The notes under the pieces are model-generated. The model did not search any database. It saw nothing but the letters and a program-made list of their open reading frames with translations, and had not been told where the DNA came from. From Dehalococcoidia bacterium (GTDB lineage: Bacteria; Chloroflexota; Dehalococcoidia; Tepidiformales; Tepidiformaceae), in assembly GCA_020847985.1 (NCBI GenBank), contig JADLBC010000008.1, positions 372,001 to 436,000 on the forward strand: a stretch of DNA of 64,000 nucleotides, read 5' to 3'. Positions within the stretch are counted from its first letter, which is position 1. Each line of letters begins with the position of its first letter. Below are positions 1,506 through 13,280 of this stretch, piece after piece. A program made the position numbers and the translations under genes.

Positions 1506-2632
1506 GCCGCCACCGTCCTTCCCGCCGCCGCGCGGCCTTCCACGAACGCACGGATCGCGCCGCACACCGCATCGACCTCGTCCTTCGTGATCGATGGGTG
1601 CATCGGCAGCGAAAGGATTTCGCGCACGGCCGCTTCCGTGCGCGGCAGCGAGCCCGCCCCCGCGCCATTCGCGGCATACGCCGGCTGCAGATGGATGGGC
1701 GTCGGGTAGTGCACCGCCGTCGCGATGCCGCATTCGCCCAGGTACCGCGCCAGCGCCTCCCGCTCCGGGTGCCGGACGACATAGAGATGGAACACGTGCC
1801 GGTCGCCCATCGGCTCGGGCGCCTGGACTCCCAGTCCCGCGAGCCCCTTCGCATACCAGCCTGCCGCCGCGATGCGCGCGGCATTCCACTCGGCCAGGTG
1901 CGGCGCCAGCACGCGCAGCGCCGCCGCCTGCAATTCGGACATCCGGTAGTTGTAGCCCGGTTCGGTGTGGACATGCCGCGCCGCCTGCCCGTGATTGCGC
2001 AGGCTCGCTACCCGTCCGGCGATGGCCGCGTCGCTTGTCAGGACCATGCCGCCTTCGCCCACCGTGCCGACGTTTTTCGTCGGGTAGAAGCTCAGGCAGC
2101 CCGCGTCCGAAAGCGTTCCCGCGAATCCGCCGCCGAGCATCGCACCATGCGCCTGGCAGGCATCCTCGATCAGCTTCAGGTCGTGCCGCGTCGCGATCGC
2201 GCGCAGCGCCGGCATGTCCGCCACTTCCCCGTACAGGTGCACCGCGATGATCGCCCGCGTCCGCGGCGTGATCCGCCGCTCCACATCCGCGGGGTCGATC
2301 ACGTGGCCGCCCTCGACGATCTCCGCGAACACCGGGGTCGCCCCCGCGAGTGAAATCGCCTCCGCCGTCGCGATAAACGTGTTCGCGACCGTAATCACCT
2401 CGTCGCCCTGGCCCACGCCGCACGCCTGCAGTGCCAGGTGCAGCGCCGCCGTTCCGCTGTTGACGGCCAGCGCGTGTGGCACGCGATACGCCGCCGCGAA
2501 CTCTCGCTCGAACGACTCCACCTCGTGCCCCTGCACGAAGGAGCCCGAATCCACCACCCGCGCGAACGCCTCGATGAGCGCATCACGCGTCGGCGCGTGC
2601 AGCCGGCTCATATCGACAAACGGGACCTTCAT
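1502..2632 (-). CDS. DegT/DnrJ/EryC1-family sugar aminotransferase
   Basis: Complete 376-residue PLP-dependent aminotransferase for sugar-nucleotide amination. It starts MKVPFVDMSRLHAP. The PLP Schiff-base lysine is in SFYPTKNVGTVGEGG, the aspartate before it in LIEDACQAHGA, and the substrate-loop region NYRMSELQAAAL is typical of this family (WbpE/WlbC/DesV group). The ATG at 2632 overlaps the stop of the upstream Gfo/Idh/MocA gene and its own stop overlaps the downstream epimerase start. A Gfo/Idh/MocA dehydrogenase directly before a DegT aminotransferase resembles the WbpB-WbpE / WlbA-WlbC pairs that build 3-amino sugars or uronates, so that is the likely step (inference). Confidence 0.9.
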   Translation of the reverse strand: MKVPFVDMSRLHAPTRDALIEAFARVVDSGSFVQGHEVESFEREFAAAYRVPHALAVNSGTAALHLALQACGVGQGDEVITVANTFIATAEAISLAGATPVFAEIVEGGHVIDPADVERRITPRTRAIIAVHLYGEVADMPALRAIATRHDLKLIEDACQAHGAMLGGGFAGTLSDAGCLSFYPTKNVGTVGEGGMVLTSDAAIAGRVASLRNHGQAARHVHTEPGYNYRMSELQAAALRVLAPHLAEWNAARIAAAGWYAKGLAGLGVQAPEPMGDRHVFHLYVVRHPEREALARYLGECGIATAVHYPTPIHLQPAYAANGAGAGSLPRTEAAVREILSLPMHPSITKDEVDAVCGAIRAFVEGRAAAGRTVAA

Positions 2633-3699
2633 GCCGCCACCTCCACGGGATAGCCGCCGCGCCGGAGCGATTCCTGCGCCGCCTCGATGATGCGAACCAC
2701 CCGCAGCCCGAGTTCGCCGCCCGAGACCGGGAGCTCCTCGCCCCGGACCACGCGCGCGAAGTGCGCCGTCTCCGCCGCCAGTGCCTCCATCTTGTCCAGC
2801 CGCGGCGCCACCACGTCGCCCGTGCGGTACTCCACCAGGCTGCGGTAGATGTCCTCCTGCGAAGCGCACAATCGCGCCCCCGAGTCGTACACCTTCAGCT
2901 TCTCGTCGATCTCCGCATCGTCGTACACCAGCATCTTCTTGCTGCCGCCGATGATCGTCCGCCGTACCTTGGTCGGCGCCAGCCAGTTCACATGGAAGTG
3001 CGCCAAGAGCGGTGGCTCGAACTGGATCGTGATGTACGCGATGTTCTCCACGTTCGTGTCCACATGCCGCGCACCGAACGCCGAAACACTCCGGATCGGG
3101 ATGTCGATGAGGTGCAGCATGATCGAGATATCGTGCGGCGCCAGGTCCCAGATCACATTGGTTTCGTGCTGGAACAACCCCAGGTTGATGCGCGTCGAGT
3201 CGTAGTAGTAGACATCGCCAATCTCGCCCGATTCGAAGTACCGCTTCATGCGCTTCACCGCTCCCGTGAACAGGAACGTGTGATCGACGGCGAGCGTACG
3301 GCCGCAGCGGCGTGCCAGCTCCACCATCTCCTCCGCATCCGCGACACTCGTCGCCAGCGGCTTCTCCACAAGCACATGCTTCCCGGATTCGAGCGCGCGC
3401 ACGACCAGGTCGTGATGCGTCTCCGGCGGCGTCGCCACCACCACGGCATCGATCGCGGGGTCCCGCAGGACATCGTTCGCGTCCGTGGTCAGGTACGTCG
3501 CCGGGTGGTTCGCCCTCGCGGCCATGAGCCGCTTCGTGCTCAGGTCCGCGATGGCGGCCAGCGTCGTTTCACTGTGCTGGGCGATGTTGCGCGCGAGGTT
3601 CGGGCCCCAGTAGCCGTAGCCAAGGACCCCCACGCGCACCGGGTCCGGGCCCACTGCGGTGGAGGGCACGCTCGACGGGCGGGGCAGCAGCGTTGTCAT
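2629..3699 (-). CDS. Gfo/Idh/MocA-family sugar-nucleotide dehydrogenase (WlbA/WbpB-like)
   Basis: NAD(P)-dependent dehydrogenase, 356 residues. The N-terminal Rossmann motif VGVLGYGYWGPNLARN is characteristic of the WlbA/WbpB branch that oxidises the 3-position of UDP-GlcNAcA-type sugars. The family lysine motif is seen as EKPLATS, and DLAPHDISIMLHL carries the H/D residues of the active site. It is the promoter-proximal gene of a four-gene minus-strand operon coupled by ATGA overlaps. No convincing ribosome binding site precedes the ATG at 3699, so it may be leaderless. Its promoter region faces the defence island on the other side of a 211-base gap. Confidence 0.87.
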   Translation of the reverse strand: MTTLLPRPSSVPSTAVGPDPVRVGVLGYGYWGPNLARNIAQHSETTLAAIADLSTKRLMAARANHPATYLTTDANDVLRDPAIDAVVVATPPETHHDLVVRALESGKHVLVEKPLATSVADAEEMVELARRCGRTLAVDHTFLFTGAVKRMKRYFESGEIGDVYYYDSTRINLGLFQHETNVIWDLAPHDISIMLHLIDIPIRSVSAFGARHVDTNVENIAYITIQFEPPLLAHFHVNWLAPTKVRRTIIGGSKKMLVYDDAEIDEKLKVYDSGARLCASQEDIYRSLVEYRTGDVVAPRLDKMEALAAETAHFARVVRGEELPVSGGELGLRVVRIIEAAQESLRRGGYPVEVAA

Positions 3700-3722: not shown

Positions 3723-3736
3723 TGGAGGGCGGATTG
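3723..3736. repeat. 14-base direct repeat, copy A
   Basis: The 14-mer TGGAGGGCGGATTG occurs here and again at 3898-3911, where it supplies the ribosome binding site and the first base of the GTG start of the DruH-like gene. The copies are 175 bases apart and flank the left island repeat. Copy A lies just upstream of the minus-strand sugar dehydrogenase. A chance 14-base match at this range is unlikely, but its role is unknown. Confidence 0.75.
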
Positions 3737-3793
3737 AGGCATGGTTGCAGCTCTGTCCACCATTCGGTGACCGCCGTGAAACGAAAGGAACAA

Positions 3794-3826
3794 CCCGGTA
3801 ACCACGCCCGCCCTCAGGGCACCCGC
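3794..3826. repeat. Left direct repeat of the defence island (attL-like)
   Basis: The stretch from CCCGGTAACCACG to CCCTCAGGGCACCCGC is repeated at 12008-12036. The only difference is a 4-base CCCG insertion here (3807-3810 or equivalent). The core GCCCTCAGGGC (3810-3820) is an odd-centred palindrome. This copy also carries the CGG-GTG-CCC-TGA codons that end the hydrolase gene at the right border, but here they are not attached to that gene. The two copies frame exactly the two defence genes. Confidence 0.88.
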
Positions 3827-3839
3827 GGGGCCCATTAGT

Positions 3840-3856
3840 GCGACAGAAGGTGTCGC
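3840..3856 (+). other. Small hairpin between island repeat and druH-like promoter
   Basis: GCGACA (3840-3845), five-base loop GAAGG, then TGTCGC (3851-3856) form a perfect 6-bp stem. It lies 12 bases before the putative -10 element of the defence operon. It could be an operator or a remnant of the insertion border; there is no U-run, so it is not a standard terminator. Confidence 0.4.
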
Positions 3857-3867
3857 GGTTGTGATCT

Positions 3868-3873
3868 TACAAT
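3868..3873 (+). promoter_or_regulatory. Possible -10 element of the defence operon
   Basis: TACAAT matches the sigma-70 -10 hexamer at five of six positions and sits 37 bases before the GTG start at 3911. No good -35 hexamer is found at 16-18 bases, so either the promoter is activator-dependent or this call is wrong. The segment TTGT..(6)..ACAA around it is weakly dyad-symmetric. Confidence 0.35.
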
Positions 3874-3897
3874 CGCCCGCTTAGGATTCCGGCGCGA

Positions 3898-3911
3898 TGG
3901 AGGGCGGATTG
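3898..3911. repeat. 14-base direct repeat, copy B (overlaps druH-like RBS)
   Basis: Second copy of TGGAGGGCGGATTG (see 3723-3736). It contains GGAGG (3899-3903), seven bases before the GTG at 3911, which decides that start. Confidence 0.75.
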
Positions 3912-6900
3912 TGGGCGGTGCTAACGAACTGAACCAGGCACTTGCCGAACGCATAAAGCACGTTCAGCTCATCGGCGAGATCCAGCTAACAGACGATGAG
4001 TTCAAGCGGGCAGTCCAGGAAATCCGCGACCTCGTTCGGCGACGCCAGGACCCGGGTGATTATCCGAGCATGCTGGCCGCCGTCATCACGGAGATCGCCG
4101 CGCGCCAATCCGACGGGATCACCCTCTGGCCCCACGTGGCGGACGCGCTCGCCCTGAACGAAGACCAGGAGAAACAACTCGGTTCCTGGTATGTCAAATA
4201 CCTGAGGAGCAAACAGCTCCCGGACTTCGAGCATCTCGTTCGAAGCGAGAGCGCAATGCGATACCGGACGCGCGTCCTCGCGCACGCGCTCGTCCCGCGT
4301 CTCCTCGTACCGCGTTTGATGGAATACGTCCTCTGGCCAGCGGTCACCGCTCCCGAGCGCGCCGGCTCAACCGGCGACGAAATCCAGCAGAACCTGGCCC
4401 GCCGGACCCAGGACGACCGGCTGCCGCGCTCGTTGCGCCGGTTCATCCTGTACGGAGGCGCGGCAGCCCGGGATATCCTCGACCGATGCCTTTCATTCGC
4501 CCGCCACGTCGCCGAACAGCGCGTCGATAGCGGCTACGGCCTGCCCCCGTGGCTGTGCCGGGCGATCGAGGAATGGGTCTGCGCGCGCCCGGACGCCGAA
4601 CGCGCACCCGCGGTCATGCTCGAAGCTGCTCGCCGCCGCTACAAGGTCCCGGCCCTCACCTTCGATCCCGGGCTCTGGCGAGTGGTTCTCGAACTGCCGC
4701 ACCAGGACCCAGCACTCGGCACCATGGCATGGCACGTCAACGCGTCCGGTGTCACGCCGGCCCACTACCCGGCCACGCTGCCGCTCTGGCAGCGGCTCGG
4801 CACGAAGACCGAACACGAAATGGCGGGTAGCTTCTCCGCTCTTCAGGTCGCACTCGTCTCACCCGATGGAAGAACGGCTGGCGCTTGGAGCCTGCCGGCA
4901 CTCAGCGTCTCGAGTCCCGTCCTCTTCTTCTCAACGTCAACGCTGCGCGCGCGGTCGAGCGGCGAGTATCTCGAGGGCGATGCCTGGTTCGTCCTGCGCG
5001 ACGCAGACGCTGCCATGAGCACCGATGGCACGCTCGTTTCAATCCAGGAACCCCGGCCGCTGCACGGCGCCTGGGGCCGCGTCGTCGCCGAATGCGTCGG
5101 CGTCGATGGCGGCAGTTGGCTGCGCGTCGGTCGCGCCGAATTCCAACTCGTGCGAGAACCCGCCCGGGCACGCCTCACCGATACCGGGGTCCCGGACTAC
5201 CTGGCACCCGTCGAAGAAGGCGTCCTCGCCTTCGAAGACCATCTTCCCGAAGTCCTCATTCCCGCCGAGGACGCCGACGGCAGCATCCTGCGGTACTGGC
5301 AGCTCGCGGTTCGCAATGCCGCGGGCGAGCAGGCGGGGCGCTCGCCGCGCGAACTCGGCGCGGTGTTCGACCGGGAAAAGAAGCACTGGTGTGTCGCACT
5401 GCAGGATCTCATCCCGCGCGAAGATGTCGGCCGCTGGGAACTCGAAGTTGCAGGCCCCCTCGGCCTGGGCTTCCAGTCGACCCTTCATATTCTTCCGCGA
5501 ATGACGGTGGAGGTCCCCCAGGAAGTCGCCATCGCGGGGGCGGCCACCGCGCCTCGCGCGGTCCTCGTCGAAGTTGACGCCAACCTCGAAGTGCTTGAGC
5601 ACCAGGATTGCGCCGAGCGAGACGGCGCGTACTGGGTGCTCGAAGACCGCAATCGCAATGGGCGTATCCCGTTCATTGTTCGTGACCCGCGCAACGGCCG
5701 CGAGGTATCGGCTGTGGTCCTGCTCCCAACCGTGCGGTGGCGGTGGCGCCGGGAGGCACCACGAGGCTATCAAAAGGTGCTGACCCGGTCGGTCAAAGAC
5801 CTCCTCGAAGGCGACTGGGCCCTGGAGGTCGAAGCCCCTCGCCGCGCCCGGCTCACGCTGGCCCTTTGGGAGTCCGGTGCGAAAGCCTCCTCCCAGCGCG
5901 AAGAGGTCGCCCGGACCTCCCCGGCGCGCCTCGGACCGGCCCGGTTCGCGGATACGCTCGCCGCAAGCCAGGCAGCACTGTTCCAATTCCGACTCGAGCT
6001 CGCTCGGTCCGGCGCCGAACCTCTCAGCAGCCTCGTCGCCGCCGCGTTCGAGCCGCCCAGGGTGTCCGGTCTCGCCGTTCACTTCGACGGCGACGAGCTC
6101 GTCCTTCGGTGGCGAATGAACCATCCGGGTGACCACCTCACCGTTCGCCTCGACAGCCAGTGGGCGCCCTGGGAGCCGATCGAGCCCGCGCCCGCCGTCC
6201 TCGTCGGTGACCTGTGGGAGGCTCGCTTCCCAGGTATGTCCGAGTGGCTGGGCCAGTTCCGGGTCGCCATCTGGTCCGAGGACGATTGGCTGGGAAGCGC
6301 GCAGCTCTATGATCACCCCCTCACTATCGGTCCGGCTGATGCCGAACGGTACCTTCGGTCGCTTCCAACCTCCGTTGAGGGGCTCCTGGAGCGGGCACTC
6401 GCGCACCCTGAGGAGGCGCTGAAAATGAATGAGGTCGCCCGATTGACCACCGACCCGGCACAGGCGCGCCGCCTCGTCGAGATTCTCTGCACGGTCCTGG
6501 GCACCAAGCTTCCCGAGGCTTGGGCAGCCTGCTCCTGGCACGCGGTGGGTGATGCCCTTGGGACGGCCGACGTGGACGTCACCCCCCTTCTCGCCGCACT
6601 TGTCAACGCACCGCGGACCGACGGTCTACTCGAGTCCCTGAAGAAGCTGGGCATCCCGAGGTGGCGAAGCGCCTGGCGCGCGCGCGCTACCCTGTCCGAG
6701 TCCGTCCGGACCGGGCTCTGGTCCGTCTGGCCACCACTCGGCGCCATGTTCGATTTCTCGTTCGATGATGACCGGGCGCGCGAACGCTGCCGCGACTATC
6801 TCGGTACCGCCGCGGGTGACATCAATAAGGAAGCCCAGGCCTCGATCGCCGGGCATCTCAGCGGGCTCGACATCCCTGCCGGCGCTTCCGGTCGCGCCTA

Positions 6901-7312
6901 TCGAGAGTCCGACGCCGTGCTCCTCACGGACGCTGGCTGGGAGGCCTGTAAGGCGCTGACGTTCAAGCCTCTCCAGGGCGAAAGTGGTCCCGCTCGTGCG
7001 CTCGCCGGCGAACTCCAATCCATCGTCGATCCACTCCGGGGTCCCTACGAAGATGCCAACGAACGCATCAAGCAGAAGCTCGGGTACGACTTCTGCGGCG
7101 TGCGAACCTTCCCTGGCGCTCGCATCGGCTATGGCCTCTTCCCCGCGATGTCCCTCGCCTGGGCGCTCGAGGACCGTCTCGTGGCTCGGGGCATCCTGCC
7201 CCCAGCACACGTCCCCGCGTCGCTCCTGGAGCTTCGCGAGGCCTTCCCCGAGCTCCACGCCCACGATCTCTGCCTGGCCGAACTCATCGTCTCCGCGAGG
7301 TCCCGCTCGTGA
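3911..7312 (+). CDS. druH: DruH-like protein, candidate Druantia type III component
   Basis: A 1133-residue protein with no enzymatic motif that I can recognise, and no signal peptide or membrane segment. The first ~280 residues look helical and charged, the middle (~290-830) is rich in alternating beta-type segments, and the last ~300 residues are again helical with several Trp-rich patches (WRSAWRARATL, GLWSVWPPLG). The GTG start follows GGAGG by seven bases. The stop overlaps the GTG of the helicase gene by four bases, so the two are coupled. The assignment rests on architecture: a very large protein of unknown function directly before a DExH/DUF1998 helicase is the published layout of Druantia type III (DruH plus DruE). 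It is not a sequence match that I could test. Alternative: an accessory protein of another helicase-based defence system. Confidence 0.6.
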   Translation: MGGANELNQALAERIKHVQLIGEIQLTDDEFKRAVQEIRDLVRRRQDPGDYPSMLAAVITEIAARQSDGITLWPHVADALALNEDQEKQLGSWYVKYLRSKQLPDFEHLVRSESAMRYRTRVLAHALVPRLLVPRLMEYVLWPAVTAPERAGSTGDEIQQNLARRTQDDRLPRSLRRFILYGGAAARDILDRCLSFARHVAEQRVDSGYGLPPWLCRAIEEWVCARPDAERAPAVMLEAARRRYKVPALTFDPGLWRVVLELPHQDPALGTMAWHVNASGVTPAHYPATLPLWQRLGTKTEHEMAGSFSALQVALVSPDGRTAGAWSLPALSVSSPVLFFSTSTLRARSSGEYLEGDAWFVLRDADAAMSTDGTLVSIQEPRPLHGAWGRVVAECVGVDGGSWLRVGRAEFQLVREPARARLTDTGVPDYLAPVEEGVLAFEDHLPEVLIPAEDADGSILRYWQLAVRNAAGEQAGRSPRELGAVFDREKKHWCVALQDLIPREDVGRWELEVAGPLGLGFQSTLHILPRMTVEVPQEVAIAGAATAPRAVLVEVDANLEVLEHQDCAERDGAYWVLEDRNRNGRIPFIVRDPRNGREVSAVVLLPTVRWRWRREAPRGYQKVLTRSVKDLLEGDWALEVEAPRRARLTLALWESGAKASSQREEVARTSPARLGPARFADTLAASQAALFQFRLELARSGAEPLSSLVAAAFEPPRVSGLAVHFDGDELVLRWRMNHPGDHLTVRLDSQWAPWEPIEPAPAVLVGDLWEARFPGMSEWLGQFRVAIWSEDDWLGSAQLYDHPLTIGPADAERYLRSLPTSVEGLLERALAHPEEALKMNEVARLTTDPAQARRLVEILCTVLGTKLPEAWAACSWHAVGDALGTADVDVTPLLAALVNAPRTDGLLESLKKLGIPRWRSAWRARATLSESVRTGLWSVWPPLGAMFDFSFDDDRARERCRDYLGTAAGDINKEAQASIAGHLSGLDIPAGASGRAYRESDAVLLTDAGWEACKALTFKPLQGESGPARALAGELQSIVDPLRGPYEDANERIKQKLGYDFCGVRTFPGARIGYGLFPAMSLAWALEDRLVARGILPPAHVPASLLELREAFPELHAHDLCLAELIVSARSRS

Positions 7313-10300
7313 CCCGTCTTGACCCCATCGCCACCAGGGACGCCATCGAGGAGTCCTACGGCCGTTACCTCCGCTCTGTGATGCGGACCAACGACCCCGC
7401 CATCAACGAGGCGATTCGCGAGGAGTGGACCCGCCTTGGCGAGTCCGTGCCGCTCGTGGCTGGCCCCATCCTGGAGTCATCACCGCCCTTTCGGCCGGGT
7501 GCCTCCATCAAGGACCTCGTGGAGCAGGGCGTCCTCTCTCCGCGCTGGTTGCATCGGCGTATGGAACACGGCCTTCCCATCGACCGGCCGCTCTACATGC
7601 ATCAGTCAAAGGCCGCCGAGCACATCGTCGGGCGCGGGCGAAATCTCGTCGTCGCCACCGGCACGGGCAGCGGCAAGACCGAAGCTTTTCTCATTCCCGT
7701 GATCGACGCCCTGCTGCGCGAACAGGACGCCGGGACCCTCGGCCCCGGCGTCCGCGCCCTTCTCCTCTACCCCATGAATGCGCTTGCCAATGACCAGCTC
7801 AAGCGCATGCGCGAACTCCTCGCGGACTGCCCCGAGATTACGTTCGGCCGCTATACAAGTGAGACCGACGAGACGCGTGGCCGAGCCGAGGCCGCCCGCC
7901 GCGACCTTCGTTTGCCGCCCGCCCGGCCCAATGAGCTTTTATCTCGCCAGGAGATGCAGCGCACCCCACCGCACATCCTCCTCACCAACTACGCGATGCT
8001 TGAGTATCTGCTCATGCGGCCAGGGGACCGGCCGCTCTTCGAAAACGACGGCCACGGCTGGCAATTCGTCGTGCTTGACGAGGTGCACTCCTACGATGGG
8101 GCCCTCGCCCTCGAACTGGGGATGCTGATGCGCAGGCTGCTCGACCGTGTCGGCCGGGCGCCTTCTGAAGTCAGATTCATTGGTACCTCCGCGACACTGG
8201 GCAGTGGCGAACGCAGCTACCCCGAGGTGGCTACCTTCGCGTCGCACCTGTTCGGCGGGGACTTCCAGTACGTCCCTGGCGATCCATCGAGGCAGGACGT
8301 CCTGGGCGCCGAGCGCCTCGCACTGGTCATGCCCGAACCCGATGACACAATCACCCTCGAAGACGCGCTCGCCGAACACGACGCAACCACACGCTCCGAG
8401 AAGCTGCTCGCCATCCCCGGTGCCCAGGCCCTTCTACAAGGCATCGCCGACCGCCCCCGCCGCGCCGAGATGCTCGCCCGCGAAATCTTCCCCGGCCGGC
8501 TGGATGCCGTTTCGCTGACGACCTCCCTGGTCGATGCCCTCGCGACCAACCGCCGGCCAGCCGAGGATCACCCCATCCTCTCCGCCCGCTACCACACCTT
8601 CGTGAGGGCGATTGAAGGACCGGCTATCTGCCTGCGCCCGCACGGGCCAAAGCGACTGCCCCGCGTCTCGCTCGTCTCCGACCGCCACTGCCGAGACTGC
8701 GGCGAAGACGCGCCCATGGCCGAACTCGCCACCTGCCGGCGATGCAACCAGTGGTATGTCCGCGGCCAGGCTATGCACGAGCAACTGGAGCGCGCCGACG
8801 GACTGGACGACACGCAACCCGACGGCAGCCCTTCCTCGGTGCGGTACTTCGCCCCCGTCCCGGGCGAATCCGATACCGACGATGACGATGACGATGCCAG
8901 CGGCGAAGCCAGAGAGACCGCCGGCGCGAGTGCCGGCGCAGGTGCCGGCGGTGGCCAACACATTGAGCTTGTAGCCTGTACCTACTGTTGGCGTCTCGAT
9001 GATGCCAGCCCGGGATGTGCCTGCCCCTCCGACGCCTGGCAACGCTTCCGCATGGCGCCACCGACCACGAGCAGCGGATCGATCAGGTGTGTGAATTGCG
9101 GCGTGCCATCCTCGACCAGCGGCCCGCGCCGGCTCCGCTTGGGGTCCGATGCACCGCCCGCCGTACTCGCTTCGACGTTGTACGACAACCTGCCTCCGCT
9201 TCTCGATGGCAACGCCGGCCAGTTCATTTCCTTCGCCGACAGCCGCCAGGATGCCGCCTTCTTTGCCTCCTACCTCGAGCGGACGTACGGAGCCATCAAC
9301 CGGCGGCGACTGATTCTTCGCGCACTCCGCCGCACCTGGACTGTGGCGGGCGGCCCCGTACGCCTCGAAGACCTCGCGTCTCCCCTTCGTTCCCTCGGCG
9401 ACCAGGAAGGGCACTTCGACGACAGCGAGTCCAGGTATGCACACCTCGCCCACGCGCGGAGCTGGCTGCTCGCCGAACTCACCAGTGTTGACCGCCGCCA
9501 ATCGCTCGATGGCGTCGCGTTGGCCGTGAGGCAGCTGGTGCGGCCGCGGCAGTGGAAGGCCCCCGCCGAGATGCGCGCCGAGCCCTGGAAGCTCGACGAT
9601 GACGAAGCCTGGCTGGTCGTTCAAACGCTGCTCGGGACGCTTGTGGACTCGCAGGTGGTGTCGTTCCCGGATGGCGTCGAAGTCACCTCGCCTATCTTCG
9701 CGCCCCGGAACCGCCAGACCTACGTCTGCGAGGACCATTCCTCGGAGAAGCACGGGATCGTCTCGTGGGTCCCCGCCAGGGAAAGCAGCGAGAATCGCCG
9801 TTCGGATTACCTTGCACGCATCCTCGCGCGGAACGGCTTCGCCGACCGGCGAGGGCAACGGGCATACGCGAATGCCCTGCTCCGCTTCATTTGGAAGGGT
9901 CTCGTCACGCGCGGAGCCAGGCTGGCCGACTACCTCGTCGCAACACATGAAGGCGCCGCCGGCGTCCGATACCAGGCCAACTATGCCTACTGGGAATGGG
10001 CCGATCCGGCGAGTCTGCTTCGCTGCACCCACTGCGGACTCTGGGCTGGCGGCGCCGTTCGCGGAGTCTGTCCCACGATGCGCTGCGAAGGCACGCTCAA
10101 TCCCCAACAGCCCGACCCCGACAATCACTATCGCGCGCTCTACGAGGCGCCCGGCGTTGGCCGTATGGTGGTCGAGGAGCACACCGCCCAGTGGAACGCC
10201 GTTCAGGCCGCGCGGATCCAACAACGCTTCCTCGATGGCGACGTGAACGTCCTCAGCTGCTCCACGACGTTCGAACTCGGCGTCGATGTGGGCGACTTGC

Positions 10301-12015
10301 AGACCGTCTTCCTCCGGAATATTCCACCGTCCGCCGCGAACTATGTGCAGCGCGCCGGTCGCGCTGGTCGCCGTCGCGAGTCGGTCGCGTTTGTTCTCTC
10401 CTACGCTCAGCTTCGCCCCCACGACCAGCACATGTTCCGGAACGCCGAGGCACTCGTCTCGGGCAACGTCCCCGTGCCCCGCGTGCCGGGGCCAAATGCG
10501 CCCATCGTCCGTCGGCACGTGCACTCCGTTGCCCTCTCGCGGTTCTTCCGCGAAGTGTTGCCCCCGGGCGACGACGCCTGGAGGACCACCGGGAAATTCT
10601 TCCTCGATGGCGACGGCGAGGCTGTCGCACGGTTCCGCGAGTGGCTCGCCGTTGAGGACAGCGCGCTCCACGCGGAACTCCTCCGCGTGGTACCCGCCGA
10701 CCTGCACGAGGCCCTTGGCGTAGCTAGCTGGGCGTGGGCAAAGGCGCTGCTCTCGGATGATTCGCCCCTCGCCCGGGCCGAGGCCGATATCGCTCAGGAC
10801 CAGCGCACCTACAAGGGACTCCAGGACGACGCATCTCAGGCGGAGGACTTCGGACGGGCCGGATACTTCAAACGGGTGCTCAACACCATTACCACGCAAT
10901 ACTTGCTGGGCTTCCTGGCGAGCCGAAACGTGATGCCCAAGTACGGCTTCCCCGTCGACGTCGTGGAACTGAAGACGAAACACCTGGAGGCTGCCGAAGC
11001 CACCCAGCTTGAACTCAATCGCGATCTCCGGGTCGCCCTTTCCGAGTACGCCCCCGGCGGCGGCGTCGTCGCCGCCAAGCGCCTGTGGATGTCGGCCGGC
11101 CTACGGCTGCTTCCCAACAAGGCGCTTCCAAGGCGCGAGTACGGCCGATGTGACACCTGCCATCGTATCGACTTCAACGCCGCGGACAGGCGTTGCTCCC
11201 TGTGCGGTAGTGACATCCGCCATGAGCACCCGATGGTCGATCCTGTATTTGGCTTTGTTTCCGGTGCCCCGGATAAGCGAAGCCTCGGCGATGAGCGGCC
11301 ACCCCGGCTCCACAGCTCGGAAGTGCTGTTCGCCGGGCTGTCGGAAGGGTCCCAGACGACTCGGGGAATACTCGCTGCCTCTCCCGGCGAGACCTTGCTT
11401 ACCGGGAGGGTATCCCGAAACGGCAGCCTGACCGTCGTGAACAACGCCCGCCGGCGTGGCTTCGCGCTGTGCGAGAGATGCGGATTCGCGATGGTTACGC
11501 CTCGGAGGGGAGAGCCCTGGCCCCGGTCACACGGCCACCCCGAACTCCGCCGCACCTGCAATGGCCGCCTGGAGCCGGTCACGCTCGGTCACACGTTCCA
11601 AACCGACATCGTCGAGTTCGGAATGCCCGGCTTCTTCGCCCGAGGGGACGATCCCGATCAGCGTGCGGCGTCTCGCGTCGCGGTGGTCACGGCCCTCGCC
11701 GAAGGAGCGGCGCGGGCCCGTCAATTGCGCCGCGAGGATCTCGAGACCACCTACTACATCGACGGCTTAGAGACGGTCTTCGTGCTCTACGACAACGTCC
11801 CAGGCGGTGCCGGTCTCGCCCGGGAGGTCTTCGATTCCTTCGCGGATGTCTTCGACGAGGCGCTCAATGTCGTGGGCCGCTGTATCTGCGGTCCCGACTC
11901 CTCCTGCTACGGTTGCATCCGAACCTATCGCAATCAGCCTTACCACGACTATCTCGACCGCGGCTTTGTCGCCTCCACGCTCCAGCCGATTGTCGATCTC
12001 CTGCGGCCCCGGTAA
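7309..12015 (+). CDS. druE: DruE-like DExH helicase with DUF1998-type C-terminus, candidate anti-phage helicase
   Basis: Superfamily 2 helicase of 1568 residues, probably the ATP-driven nucleic-acid motor of a Druantia III-like system. Motif I is ATGTGSGKT (116-124), motif Ia LYPMNALANDQ (153-163), motif II DEVH (257-260), motif III GTSATLG (~295), and motif VI QRAGRAGRR (~1014-1022). Cysteine pairs typical of zinc sites occur near 461-478, 556-594, 906-925, 1281-1302 and 1388. The C-terminus has the DUF1998/MrfA-like signature YDNVPGGAGLA followed by CICGPDSSCYGC (~1525-1537). A DDDDDD-containing acidic, Ala/Gly-rich insert lies at ~520-555. It starts with GTG overlapping the stop of the DruH-like gene. 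Its last codons (Pro-Arg-stop) lie inside the right island repeat. The helicase class is certain; the system assignment is inference, since YprA/MrfA- and DrmA/DrmB-type proteins share this domain set. Confidence 0.75.
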   Translation: MTRLDPIATRDAIEESYGRYLRSVMRTNDPAINEAIREEWTRLGESVPLVAGPILESSPPFRPGASIKDLVEQGVLSPRWLHRRMEHGLPIDRPLYMHQSKAAEHIVGRGRNLVVATGTGSGKTEAFLIPVIDALLREQDAGTLGPGVRALLLYPMNALANDQLKRMRELLADCPEITFGRYTSETDETRGRAEAARRDLRLPPARPNELLSRQEMQRTPPHILLTNYAMLEYLLMRPGDRPLFENDGHGWQFVVLDEVHSYDGALALELGMLMRRLLDRVGRAPSEVRFIGTSATLGSGERSYPEVATFASHLFGGDFQYVPGDPSRQDVLGAERLALVMPEPDDTITLEDALAEHDATTRSEKLLAIPGAQALLQGIADRPRRAEMLAREIFPGRLDAVSLTTSLVDALATNRRPAEDHPILSARYHTFVRAIEGPAICLRPHGPKRLPRVSLVSDRHCRDCGEDAPMAELATCRRCNQWYVRGQAMHEQLERADGLDDTQPDGSPSSVRYFAPVPGESDTDDDDDDASGEARETAGASAGAGAGGGQHIELVACTYCWRLDDASPGCACPSDAWQRFRMAPPTTSSGSIRCVNCGVPSSTSGPRRLRLGSDAPPAVLASTLYDNLPPLLDGNAGQFISFADSRQDAAFFASYLERTYGAINRRRLILRALRRTWTVAGGPVRLEDLASPLRSLGDQEGHFDDSESRYAHLAHARSWLLAELTSVDRRQSLDGVALAVRQLVRPRQWKAPAEMRAEPWKLDDDEAWLVVQTLLGTLVDSQVVSFPDGVEVTSPIFAPRNRQTYVCEDHSSEKHGIVSWVPARESSENRRSDYLARILARNGFADRRGQRAYANALLRFIWKGLVTRGARLADYLVATHEGAAGVRYQANYAYWEWADPASLLRCTHCGLWAGGAVRGVCPTMRCEGTLNPQQPDPDNHYRALYEAPGVGRMVVEEHTAQWNAVQAARIQQRFLDGDVNVLSCSTTFELGVDVGDLQTVFLRNIPPSAANYVQRAGRAGRRRESVAFVLSYAQLRPHDQHMFRNAEALVSGNVPVPRVPGPNAPIVRRHVHSVALSRFFREVLPPGDDAWRTTGKFFLDGDGEAVARFREWLAVEDSALHAELLRVVPADLHEALGVASWAWAKALLSDDSPLARAEADIAQDQRTYKGLQDDASQAEDFGRAGYFKRVLNTITTQYLLGFLASRNVMPKYGFPVDVVELKTKHLEAAEATQLELNRDLRVALSEYAPGGGVVAAKRLWMSAGLRLLPNKALPRREYGRCDTCHRIDFNAADRRCSLCGSDIRHEHPMVDPVFGFVSGAPDKRSLGDERPPRLHSSEVLFAGLSEGSQTTRGILAASPGETLLTGRVSRNGSLTVVNNARRRGFALCERCGFAMVTPRRGEPWPRSHGHPELRRTCNGRLEPVTLGHTFQTDIVEFGMPGFFARGDDPDQRAASRVAVVTALAEGAARARQLRREDLETTYYIDGLETVFVLYDNVPGGAGLAREVFDSFADVFDEALNVVGRCICGPDSSCYGCIRTYRNQPYHDYLDRGFVASTLQPIVDLLRPR

Positions 12016-12036
12016 CCACGCCCTCAGGGCACCCGC
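12008..12036. repeat. Right direct repeat of the defence island (attR-like)
   Basis: 29-base copy of the 3794-3826 repeat, lacking its CCCG tetranucleotide. It contains the stop codon of the helicase gene (TAA, 12013-12015) and the last four codons, including the stop, of the convergent hydrolase-like gene (12024-12035). The palindromic core GCCCTCAGGGC is at 12020-12030 and might also serve as a short bidirectional stem, but no U-run follows. Confidence 0.88.
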
Positions 12037-13280
12037 AGTGCCGCCGCCCCGTAGTACGCCGCCGCGCGGGCGCGGAAGTAGCCGCCGTCGTCGTCGGCGC
12101 TGTAGGAGGGGATGGCCGATGCGTCTGTCGTGCGTGTGTTGGTGATGCCGTCGCGTTGCGCGTCGCGCGCGTCTGTTGCTCCGTCGGCCCCCCGCCCGAA
12201 CAGCAATGCGATGACGCCCGCCTCCGTGTAGGCCCGGAGGTGCGCTTCGCTGCCCGCTCCCAGGAGCCACTCCACGCGGTTGTCCTGGTAGTGCCCCCGC
12301 GTGTTGTCCATCGCCGCCATGAGCGTATTGCCGAACGGGATCTGCCAGAGCATCGCCCGCAGGCCCGTCGCCCGCCCGAACGTGCCGATGAACGCCGCGT
12401 GCTGCCGGAAGTCCGTCTCGTCCCACCATGACGCGCCGTGGTCCCCGTCGACCACCTGTTTGTACCCCGCGTCCCGGTCCGAGAATTCGCCGAAGAAGAG
12501 GTCGAACCGCGCACCCATGGACCGGTAGAACGCCGCTTCACTCTCCGCGAACACCCGCACTTCGGCGTCCGTGAAGTGCCCATAGGTGAAGTCGTGCCCG
12601 GTGCCCCAGTTGCTCAGGCTGTACGCGAGCAGCACGTTCGGCGCCGCCCGGTCACGCATCGCCACGATCTCCCGCGCCAGGCCCGCGAGCGTCCCGGGCT
12701 GACCCGTTGCACCGGGCATCGCCACCGCCACATGGCCCGCGTCGTCGCTGTTCGCCGCCTGGTGCGCGAACCCCCAGAGGTCTGGCTCCAGGTGTAGGAC
12801 CAGCGGCCCGCCGCTCGCCGCTGCCCGTTCGAAGAACAACGCCAGTCCGTCGAGATACCGCGCCATGAGCACCGGGTCCTTCAGGCCGCGTTCGACCTTC
12901 GCCTGCTCGCTGCCCTCGCCGGTCACCGATTGCTGGAGCACGTAGTAGCTGAAGACAGGCGTCATGCCCGCCGCCCGCGACTCCCGGATGTACGAGCTCA
13001 CGAATTCACCATTCGGCTCCCACGACATCCAGCCGTCGGTCACGCTGCCCGCGAGGTACTGGTAGCGGTACGCGAACGGCGCCGTCTCGCGCATCGCCGT
13101 CGCGCCCCCCGGGCCCGAGGCCATGCCAAGCTCCAGCGTCGAAGAGAGTCCCGGCGGCACCGGCGCCAGCGTTGGCCCGCCGCTGGGCCACACCAGCCAC
13201 CCAGCCACGGCGGCCGCGATCAACGCCCCCGCAACCGCGAGGGCGCCGCGCCTCAGTTTCTGGATTGCCACGGCCTGCAC
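12024..13280 (-). CDS. Membrane-anchored or secreted glycoside-hydrolase-like protein
   Basis: 418 residues. An N-terminal basic stretch followed by a hydrophobic helix (about residues 11-31, ALAVAGALIAAAVAGWLVW) predicts a signal anchor or signal peptide. The rest looks like a TIM-barrel carbohydrate hydrolase: WMSWEPNGEF, PLVLHLEPDLWGF, ALFFERAAASGG, FFGEFSDRDAGYK and AMLWQIPFGN resemble strand ends of (beta/alpha)8 enzymes with acidic residues. No family assignment is secure. It lies in the glycan locus, divergent from the flippase gene, which suggests trimming or degrading an exported polysaccharide. Its 3' end is duplicated at the far side of the defence island, so this gene end appears to be the integration target. 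Confidence 0.65.
   Translation of the reverse strand: MQAVAIQKLRRGALAVAGALIAAAVAGWLVWPSGGPTLAPVPPGLSSTLELGMASGPGGATAMRETAPFAYRYQYLAGSVTDGWMSWEPNGEFVSSYIRESRAAGMTPVFSYYVLQQSVTGEGSEQAKVERGLKDPVLMARYLDGLALFFERAAASGGPLVLHLEPDLWGFAHQAANSDDAGHVAVAMPGATGQPGTLAGLAREIVAMRDRAAPNVLLAYSLSNWGTGHDFTYGHFTDAEVRVFAESEAAFYRSMGARFDLFFGEFSDRDAGYKQVVDGDHGASWWDETDFRQHAAFIGTFGRATGLRAMLWQIPFGNTLMAAMDNTRGHYQDNRVEWLLGAGSEAHLRAYTEAGVIALLFGRGADGATDARDAQRDGITNTRTTDASAIPSYSADDDGGYFRARAAAYYGAAALRVP

What the first reader, a model, noticed from the sequence alone, without database searches (positions are those of the whole stretch)
3794..12036. Near-identical direct repeats frame the defence module: integration scar in the 3' end of a gene
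The sequence from CCCGGTAACC to CAGGGCACCCGC occurs at 3794-3826 and 12008-12036, identical apart from a 4-base CCCG insertion in the left copy. Together they bracket exactly the two defence genes. The right copy covers the end of the hydrolase-like gene, and the left copy carries the same CGG-GTG-CCC-TGA end without the gene. The odd-centred palindrome GCCCTCAGGGC sits in each copy. This is the pattern left by site-specific integration into a gene 3' end, yet no integrase lies inside, so mobilisation in trans or exchange by homologous recombination is implied.
Basis: seen in the sequence. Interest (0 to 1): 0.85.

Follow-up and report, generated by a model that had tools for sequence, protein, structure and literature searches.

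The report
Insertion scar around a defence module
An 8.2-kb pair of antiphage-type genes was inserted between two sugar-metabolism genes of a Tepidiformaceae bacterium, leaving a 29-base stretch of the target duplicated on both sides; the scar is real, but the idea that a site-specific integrase made it is not supported.

Summary
The repeat is real: 3794-3826 and 12008-12036 match over 29 bases apart from a 4-base GCCC slip. These are the only two copies in the 3.28-Mb genome. None occurs in 196 other genomes of the class or in IMG/VR. The repeat frames a two-gene module: a DruE-type helicase (7309-12015) and a 1133-aa companion (3911-7312). The sister species and another genus carry the same hydrolase-oxidoreductase pair directly adjacent, with no module and room for one copy. 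So this is an insertion scar in the 3' end of the hydrolase-like gene.

An integrase "att" reading fits poorly. The repeated sequence is not conserved even within the genus. The module has no integrase and the genome no serine recombinase. The only element-type tyrosine integrase sits at its own tRNA-Glu. None of eight relatives of the module has border repeats. The repeat looks like a duplication of the target made at insertion, for example by fill-in and end joining; Ku and LigD are present. That step is inferred.

By-products: the module carries a conserved operator-promoter; its helicase lacks Druantia III's nuclease domains; the companion is not recognisable as DruH.

The parts
3794..3826 (+). 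left border repeat, 33 bp (29 bp plus a tandem GCCC)
12008..12036 (+). right border repeat, 29 bp; contains the helicase stop codon (12013-12015) and the last 13 bases of the hydrolase-like gene (12024-12036)
3840..3856 (.). palindrome GCGACA-GAAGG-TGTCGC, operator-like; equivalents upstream of the companion gene in all three family relatives
3859..3887 (+). promoter-like TTGTGA-17-TAGGAT directly after the palindrome; same layout (18-nt spacer) in G020, T. flava and, more weakly, G014. The generic consensus scan did not flag it
   Evidence: inspection
3911..7312 (+). 1133-aa companion protein in the position of DruH; homologues directly before the helicase in 3 Tepidiformaceae and 6 other Chloroflexota; not recognised by PADLOC, Pfam or NCBIfam
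7309..12015 (+). 1568-aa DruE-type helicase of the YprA family (DEAD, Helicase_C, MZB); ends before the PLD nuclease region of Druantia III DruE
12024..13280 (-). hydrolase-like gene whose 3' end is the target of the insertion; 59% identical orthologue in the sister species
2629..3699 (-). Gfo/Idh/MocA oxidoreductase; next to the hydrolase-like gene in the empty sites of G001 and G010

Best explanation
A Druantia III-like two-gene defence module, with its own operator and promoter, was inserted once and fairly recently into the last bases of a hydrolase-like gene in a Tepidiformaceae genome. Shown: the site is empty in the sister species and in another genus, the DNA outside each repeat copy is chromosomal, and the room between the genes in relatives fits one copy. 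Inferred: the 29 bases come from the target and were duplicated when the module went in. The likeliest route is a break with offset nicks about 29 bases apart, capture of the module fragment, filling-in of both overhangs and end joining by the genome's Ku and LigD. In that reading the helicase took its stop codon from the target DNA. The repeats are then a scar, not recognition sites.
For: Repeat confirmed and confined to the two borders. Empty homologous sites: G001 has the hydrolase stop 57 bp before the oxidoreductase ATG, and G010 has the genes about 100 bp apart. The one-copy site reconstructed from the window aligns with the G001 and G010 intergenic DNA (scores 82 and 67.5 against shuffle maxima near 61), including GCGGTCACCGAATGGT against GCGGTCACC-AATGGT just outside the left copy. 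Distance from the Tyr-Tyr codons to the oxidoreductase ATG is 137-141 nt with one copy, against 117 and 106 nt in relatives. The target sequence is unique to this genome. There is no integrase or transposase in the module. Ku and a LigD with phosphoesterase, ligase and polymerase domains are encoded. Eight module relatives have no border repeats.
Against: A 29-bp duplication is long for a random staggered break. The module fits its borders very tightly: 13 bp from the left repeat to the operator, and the helicase stop inside the right repeat. That suggests a defined unit rather than a random fragment. No conspecific genome without the module was available, so the exact empty-site sequence is reconstructed, not observed. 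The genome is a 66-contig draft and no reads could be checked.
Confidence: 0.55

Rival explanations
1. Site-specific integration: the module is an integrative element, or the remnant of one, whose attP carried the 29 bp. An integrase supplied in trans or since lost placed it in the 3' end of the hydrolase-like gene.
For: Classic layout of a gene 3' end plus a distal direct repeat. E. coli islands with Druantia III and ARMADA are bounded by 16-20-nt direct repeats at tRNA genes (PMC12458937). Dehalococcoides islands of the same class are bounded by 20-bp ssrA repeats (PMC3146451). Borders are tight.
Against: No integrase or remnant in 8.2 kb; none elsewhere that fits. The target is an accessory gene whose end is not conserved within the genus. 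The repeat is absent from 196 other class genomes and IMG/VR. Module relatives have no border repeats.
Confidence: 0.25
2. Single crossover of a circular molecule that already carried the 29 bp, for instance picked up by earlier excision from the same locus in another strain, using short homology.
For: It would give direct repeats around exactly the incoming DNA, as observed, and needs no integrase.
Against: It needs a donor that already had the hydrolase gene end. 29 bp is short for RecA-dependent crossover (general knowledge).
Confidence: 0.12
3. Transposon-like insertion with target-site duplication by an unidentified transposase acting in trans.
For: Target duplication; non-conserved target.
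Against: No terminal inverted repeats are evident at the inner ends (sequence inspection), no transposase gene, and 29 bp is longer than usual duplications.
Confidence: 0.06
4. Assembly artefact joining two unrelated molecules at a shared short sequence.
For: The genome is a draft of 66 contigs; reads could not be checked.
Against: The contig is 503 kb and the two copies differ by 4 bp. The closest relatives found for the module are in the same family. Flanks on both sides are collinear with the sister genome.
Confidence: 0.02

Closest known systems
Druantia type III and III-like systems (DruH-DruE; YprA-family helicases)
   Same: Two large co-directional overlapping genes, the second a DruE3-type helicase with MZB domain. 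PMC12458937 describes a III-like branch whose helicases most often have no nuclease domain, as here.
   Different: The helicase lacks the PLD region (matches DruE 9tu7 only to residue 1715 of 2108). The first gene shows no detectable sequence relation to DruH.
E. coli defence islands with ARMADA II and Druantia III in tRNA-Phe and tRNA-Leu (PMC12458937)
   Same: Defence genes framed by direct repeats, one at the 3' end of a gene.
   Different: Those carry or retain integrases and use tRNA genes; here the target is an accessory protein gene and no recombinase is present.
Dehalococcoides ssrA genomic islands (PMC3146451)
   Same: Same class of bacteria; cargo framed by a 20-bp direct repeat of a gene end.
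   Different: They use a conserved single-copy gene and serine recombinases (DsiAB), many copies per genome; here two copies and no serine recombinase.
Bacterial non-homologous end joining (Ku-LigD)
   Same: The machinery is encoded in this genome and could capture a fragment at a staggered break.
   Different: No direct evidence that it acted here; the 29-bp stagger is long.

Membership tests
Integrase-type genomic island (attL/attR) | direct repeats at both borders, one at a gene 3' end | tested here: met
Integrase-type genomic island (attL/attR) | empty homologous site with room for one copy | tested here: met
   G001 and G010; conspecific strain not available
Integrase-type genomic island (attL/attR) | integrase in the element or a matching one in the genome | tested here: not met
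Integrase-type genomic island (attL/attR) | attachment site conserved or used by other elements | tested here: not met
Integrase-type genomic island (attL/attR) | excision as a circle | not testable with these tools
   no reads or cells
Druantia type III | DruE helicase of the YprA family with MZB domain | tested here: met
Druantia type III | C-terminal PLD nuclease domains on DruE | tested here: not met
   also absent by length in relatives
Druantia type III | DruH partner | tested here: not met
   no PADLOC DruH hit although E. coli DruH scores 2457 bits in the same library; HHalign probability 0.1. Predicted layout helical-beta-helical is like DruH but the model is poor
Transposon with target-site duplication | transposase and terminal inverted repeats | tested here: not met
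   inner ends inspected by eye
NHEJ fragment capture | Ku and LigD present | tested here: met
NHEJ fragment capture | direct demonstration of fill-in joining at this locus | not testable with these tools
   needs experiment

The most novel reading that the evidence does not exclude
The module is a compact mobile defence cassette (operator, companion, helicase; nothing else) that is moved precisely by an unrecognised mechanism duplicating about 29 bp of target and needing no recombinase of its own.
Probability: 0.1. Interest if true: 0.7.

Novelty: new variant of a known kind. Interest (0 to 1): 0.36.

Why it matters
How small defence modules without integrases spread is poorly known. This locus gives a before-and-after pair within one genus, with exact borders, so the mode of arrival can be tested directly. 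It also marks a Druantia III-like variant with no nuclease domain, a companion unlike DruH, and a conserved operator-like motif that also lies before a CRISPR-Cas gene in a relative.

Tried and rejected
Dispersed repeat: rejected, two copies only. Hairpin or terminator function of the odd palindrome: folds no better than shuffles, no terminator found. tRNA or tmRNA target: none in the window. Border repeats as a property of the module family: eight relatives tested, none; T. flava compared with its relatives lacking the module, no repeat. Carriage of the companion gene by phages, plasmids or IMG/VR contigs: no match. Single-sequence and profile searches of GTDB contigs found only two Tepidiformaceae relatives. 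Structure prediction of the companion was poor (pLDDT 52) and the fold search uninformative (TM about 0.1). Literature searches for a precedent of long target duplications by bacterial end joining gave nothing usable.

Full report
Observation. The repeat is exactly as described. Left copy 3794-3826, right copy 12008-12036; 29 bases agree and the left copy has an additional GCCC, a tandem slip in ACGCCC(GCCC)TCAGGG. A search of the 3.28-Mb genome gives these two places only, and the 17-bp core has no other site with fewer than three mismatches. The longest uninterrupted match, 18 bp, would not be unusual by itself in this GC-rich window. The whole match on the two borders is: local score 49, against at most 30 in 3000 Markov nulls and 41 in 2971 random pairs of real windows.

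What lies between. The genome belongs to Tepidiformaceae (Dehalococcoidia): its family includes Tepidiforma flava. The module is 3827-12007 plus one repeat copy, 8.2 kb. The second gene (7309-12015) is a DruE3-type helicase (PADLOC E = 5.5e-171) with DEAD, Helicase_C and MZB domains. It matches the solved Druantia DruE (9tu7) only up to residue 1715 of 2108. The rest is where the PLD nuclease domains lie, according to PMC13192584 and PMC12458937. The first gene (3911-7312) is the same kind of partner in position and size as DruH but matches no DruH model and not E. coli DruH by profile comparison. Its homologues precede the helicase in three Tepidiformaceae (about 30% identity) and in six further Chloroflexota; several of the latter carry a C-terminal sigma-70 factor. 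GC content of the module is slightly lower (0.65-0.68) than most of the flanks (0.69-0.71).

Empty site. In the sister species G001 the hydrolase-like gene (59% identity) ends 57 bp before the ATG of the oxidoreductase (81% identity); the surrounding flippase and methyltransferase genes are collinear. G010 has the same pair adjacent. G005 and G017 have the oxidoreductase next to the flippase without the hydrolase-like gene. Joining the two flanks of the window over one repeat copy gives DNA that aligns with the intergenic DNA of G001 (score 82, shuffle maximum 61) and G010 (67.5, 60.5). A block just outside the left copy (GCGGTCACCGAATGGT; GCGGTCACC-AATGGT in G010) shows that the left flank is chromosomal. 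Part of the repeat itself (GGTGCC..TGAGG) resembles the hydrolase gene end of G010, so that part belongs to the target (inspection). The spacing between conserved blocks fits one copy (137-141 nt against 117 and 106 nt). The insertion therefore most likely happened after this lineage split from G001; the alternative, loss in the others, would need the same clean removal more than once. The sequence identity of the repeats suggests it is not old (inference).

Mechanism. An integrase-made repeat requires the incoming element to carry the same 29 bp. The target is the end of a gene present in 8 of 61 relatives, and the sequence is not conserved in the sister species. The pattern is absent from the 196 other class genomes searched and from 2.9 million viral contigs. 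The genome encodes two Xer-like recombinases, one 406-aa integrase next to tRNA-Glu, a fragment, and no serine recombinase. None of eight relatives of the module that could be examined has a border repeat, including the T. flava copy, where relatives show the locus without the module. A duplication of the target during insertion needs none of this. Ku and a complete LigD are encoded, so filling-in and joining of a break with offset nicks is possible; this step is inferred. The main point against it is the tightness of the borders: 13 bp between the left repeat and the operator, and the helicase stop codon inside the right repeat, while the helicase has about its normal length. That leaves room for a precise, unknown mode of cassette movement, and for an integrase in trans.

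Function. In studied Druantia III systems DruH is the likely phage sensor and DruE a helicase acting on replication intermediates (PMC13192584; PMC13316683). The module probably works in a similar way, but without a nuclease domain on its helicase. Nothing here tests defence.

Operator. In all four family copies a palindrome GCGACA-N5/6-TGTCGC (one base weaker in T. flava) lies just upstream of promoter-like hexamers before the companion gene (window 3840-3856). In G014 the same motif, one base weaker, also lies about 100 bp before the cas7 gene of a type I-U (I-G) CRISPR system beside the module. The module thus moves with its own regulatory region.

Noticed in passing
window 3840-3856; L043 8343; L044 18225, 7368, 9770; L045 17239: Palindrome GCGACA-N5/6-TGTCGC (sometimes one base weaker) upstream of the companion gene in all four Tepidiformaceae modules, and also about 100 bp before the cas7 gene of a type I-U/I-G CRISPR system in G014: a possible shared defence operator.
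   Followed up: partly
L055, L056, L057, L059, L061 (wider context L085, L086, L087, L089): Homologues of the companion protein in other Chloroflexota end in a sigma-70-type domain (PADLOC calls it MzaA; in L055 Pfam finds regions 1.2, 2, 3 and 4), and those with wider context sit directly before a DruE-type helicase. A sensor joined to a sigma factor would be unusual for a defence system.
   Followed up: partly
window 7309-12015: DruE-type helicase without the PLD nuclease region; relatives in the phylum also end at about the same place.
   Followed up: partly
L044 10033-14708; L045 8974-13690; L043 11913-16283: The helicase gene is split by frame breaks in G014 and in T. flava, and the G020 copy has a stop inside. 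Decay or sequencing error is undecided.
   Followed up: no
L076 9765-11157 (G000 C23): The only full-length element-type tyrosine integrase found in the genome lies next to tRNA-Glu, near a replication-relaxation gene: probably a separate integrated element.
   Followed up: partly
window 3723-3739 and 3898-3914: A 17-bp near-identical direct repeat (TGGAGGGCGGATTGAGG / TGGAGGGCGGATTGTGG), one copy in a conserved block upstream of the oxidoreductase, one at the ribosome-binding site of the companion gene; possibly chance.
   Followed up: no
L038 around 8620; window 12008-12017: The 10-mer CCCGGTAACC of the repeat also occurs, inverted, near the end of the hydrolase-like gene of the sister species; possibly chance.
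   Followed up: no
L045 8899-18702; L072; L073; L074: A variable locus in Tepidiforma: the same two flanks enclose 9.8 kb with the defence module in T. flava, 0.5 kb in G022, 1.7 kb in G014 and 2.3 kb in G029.
   Followed up: partly
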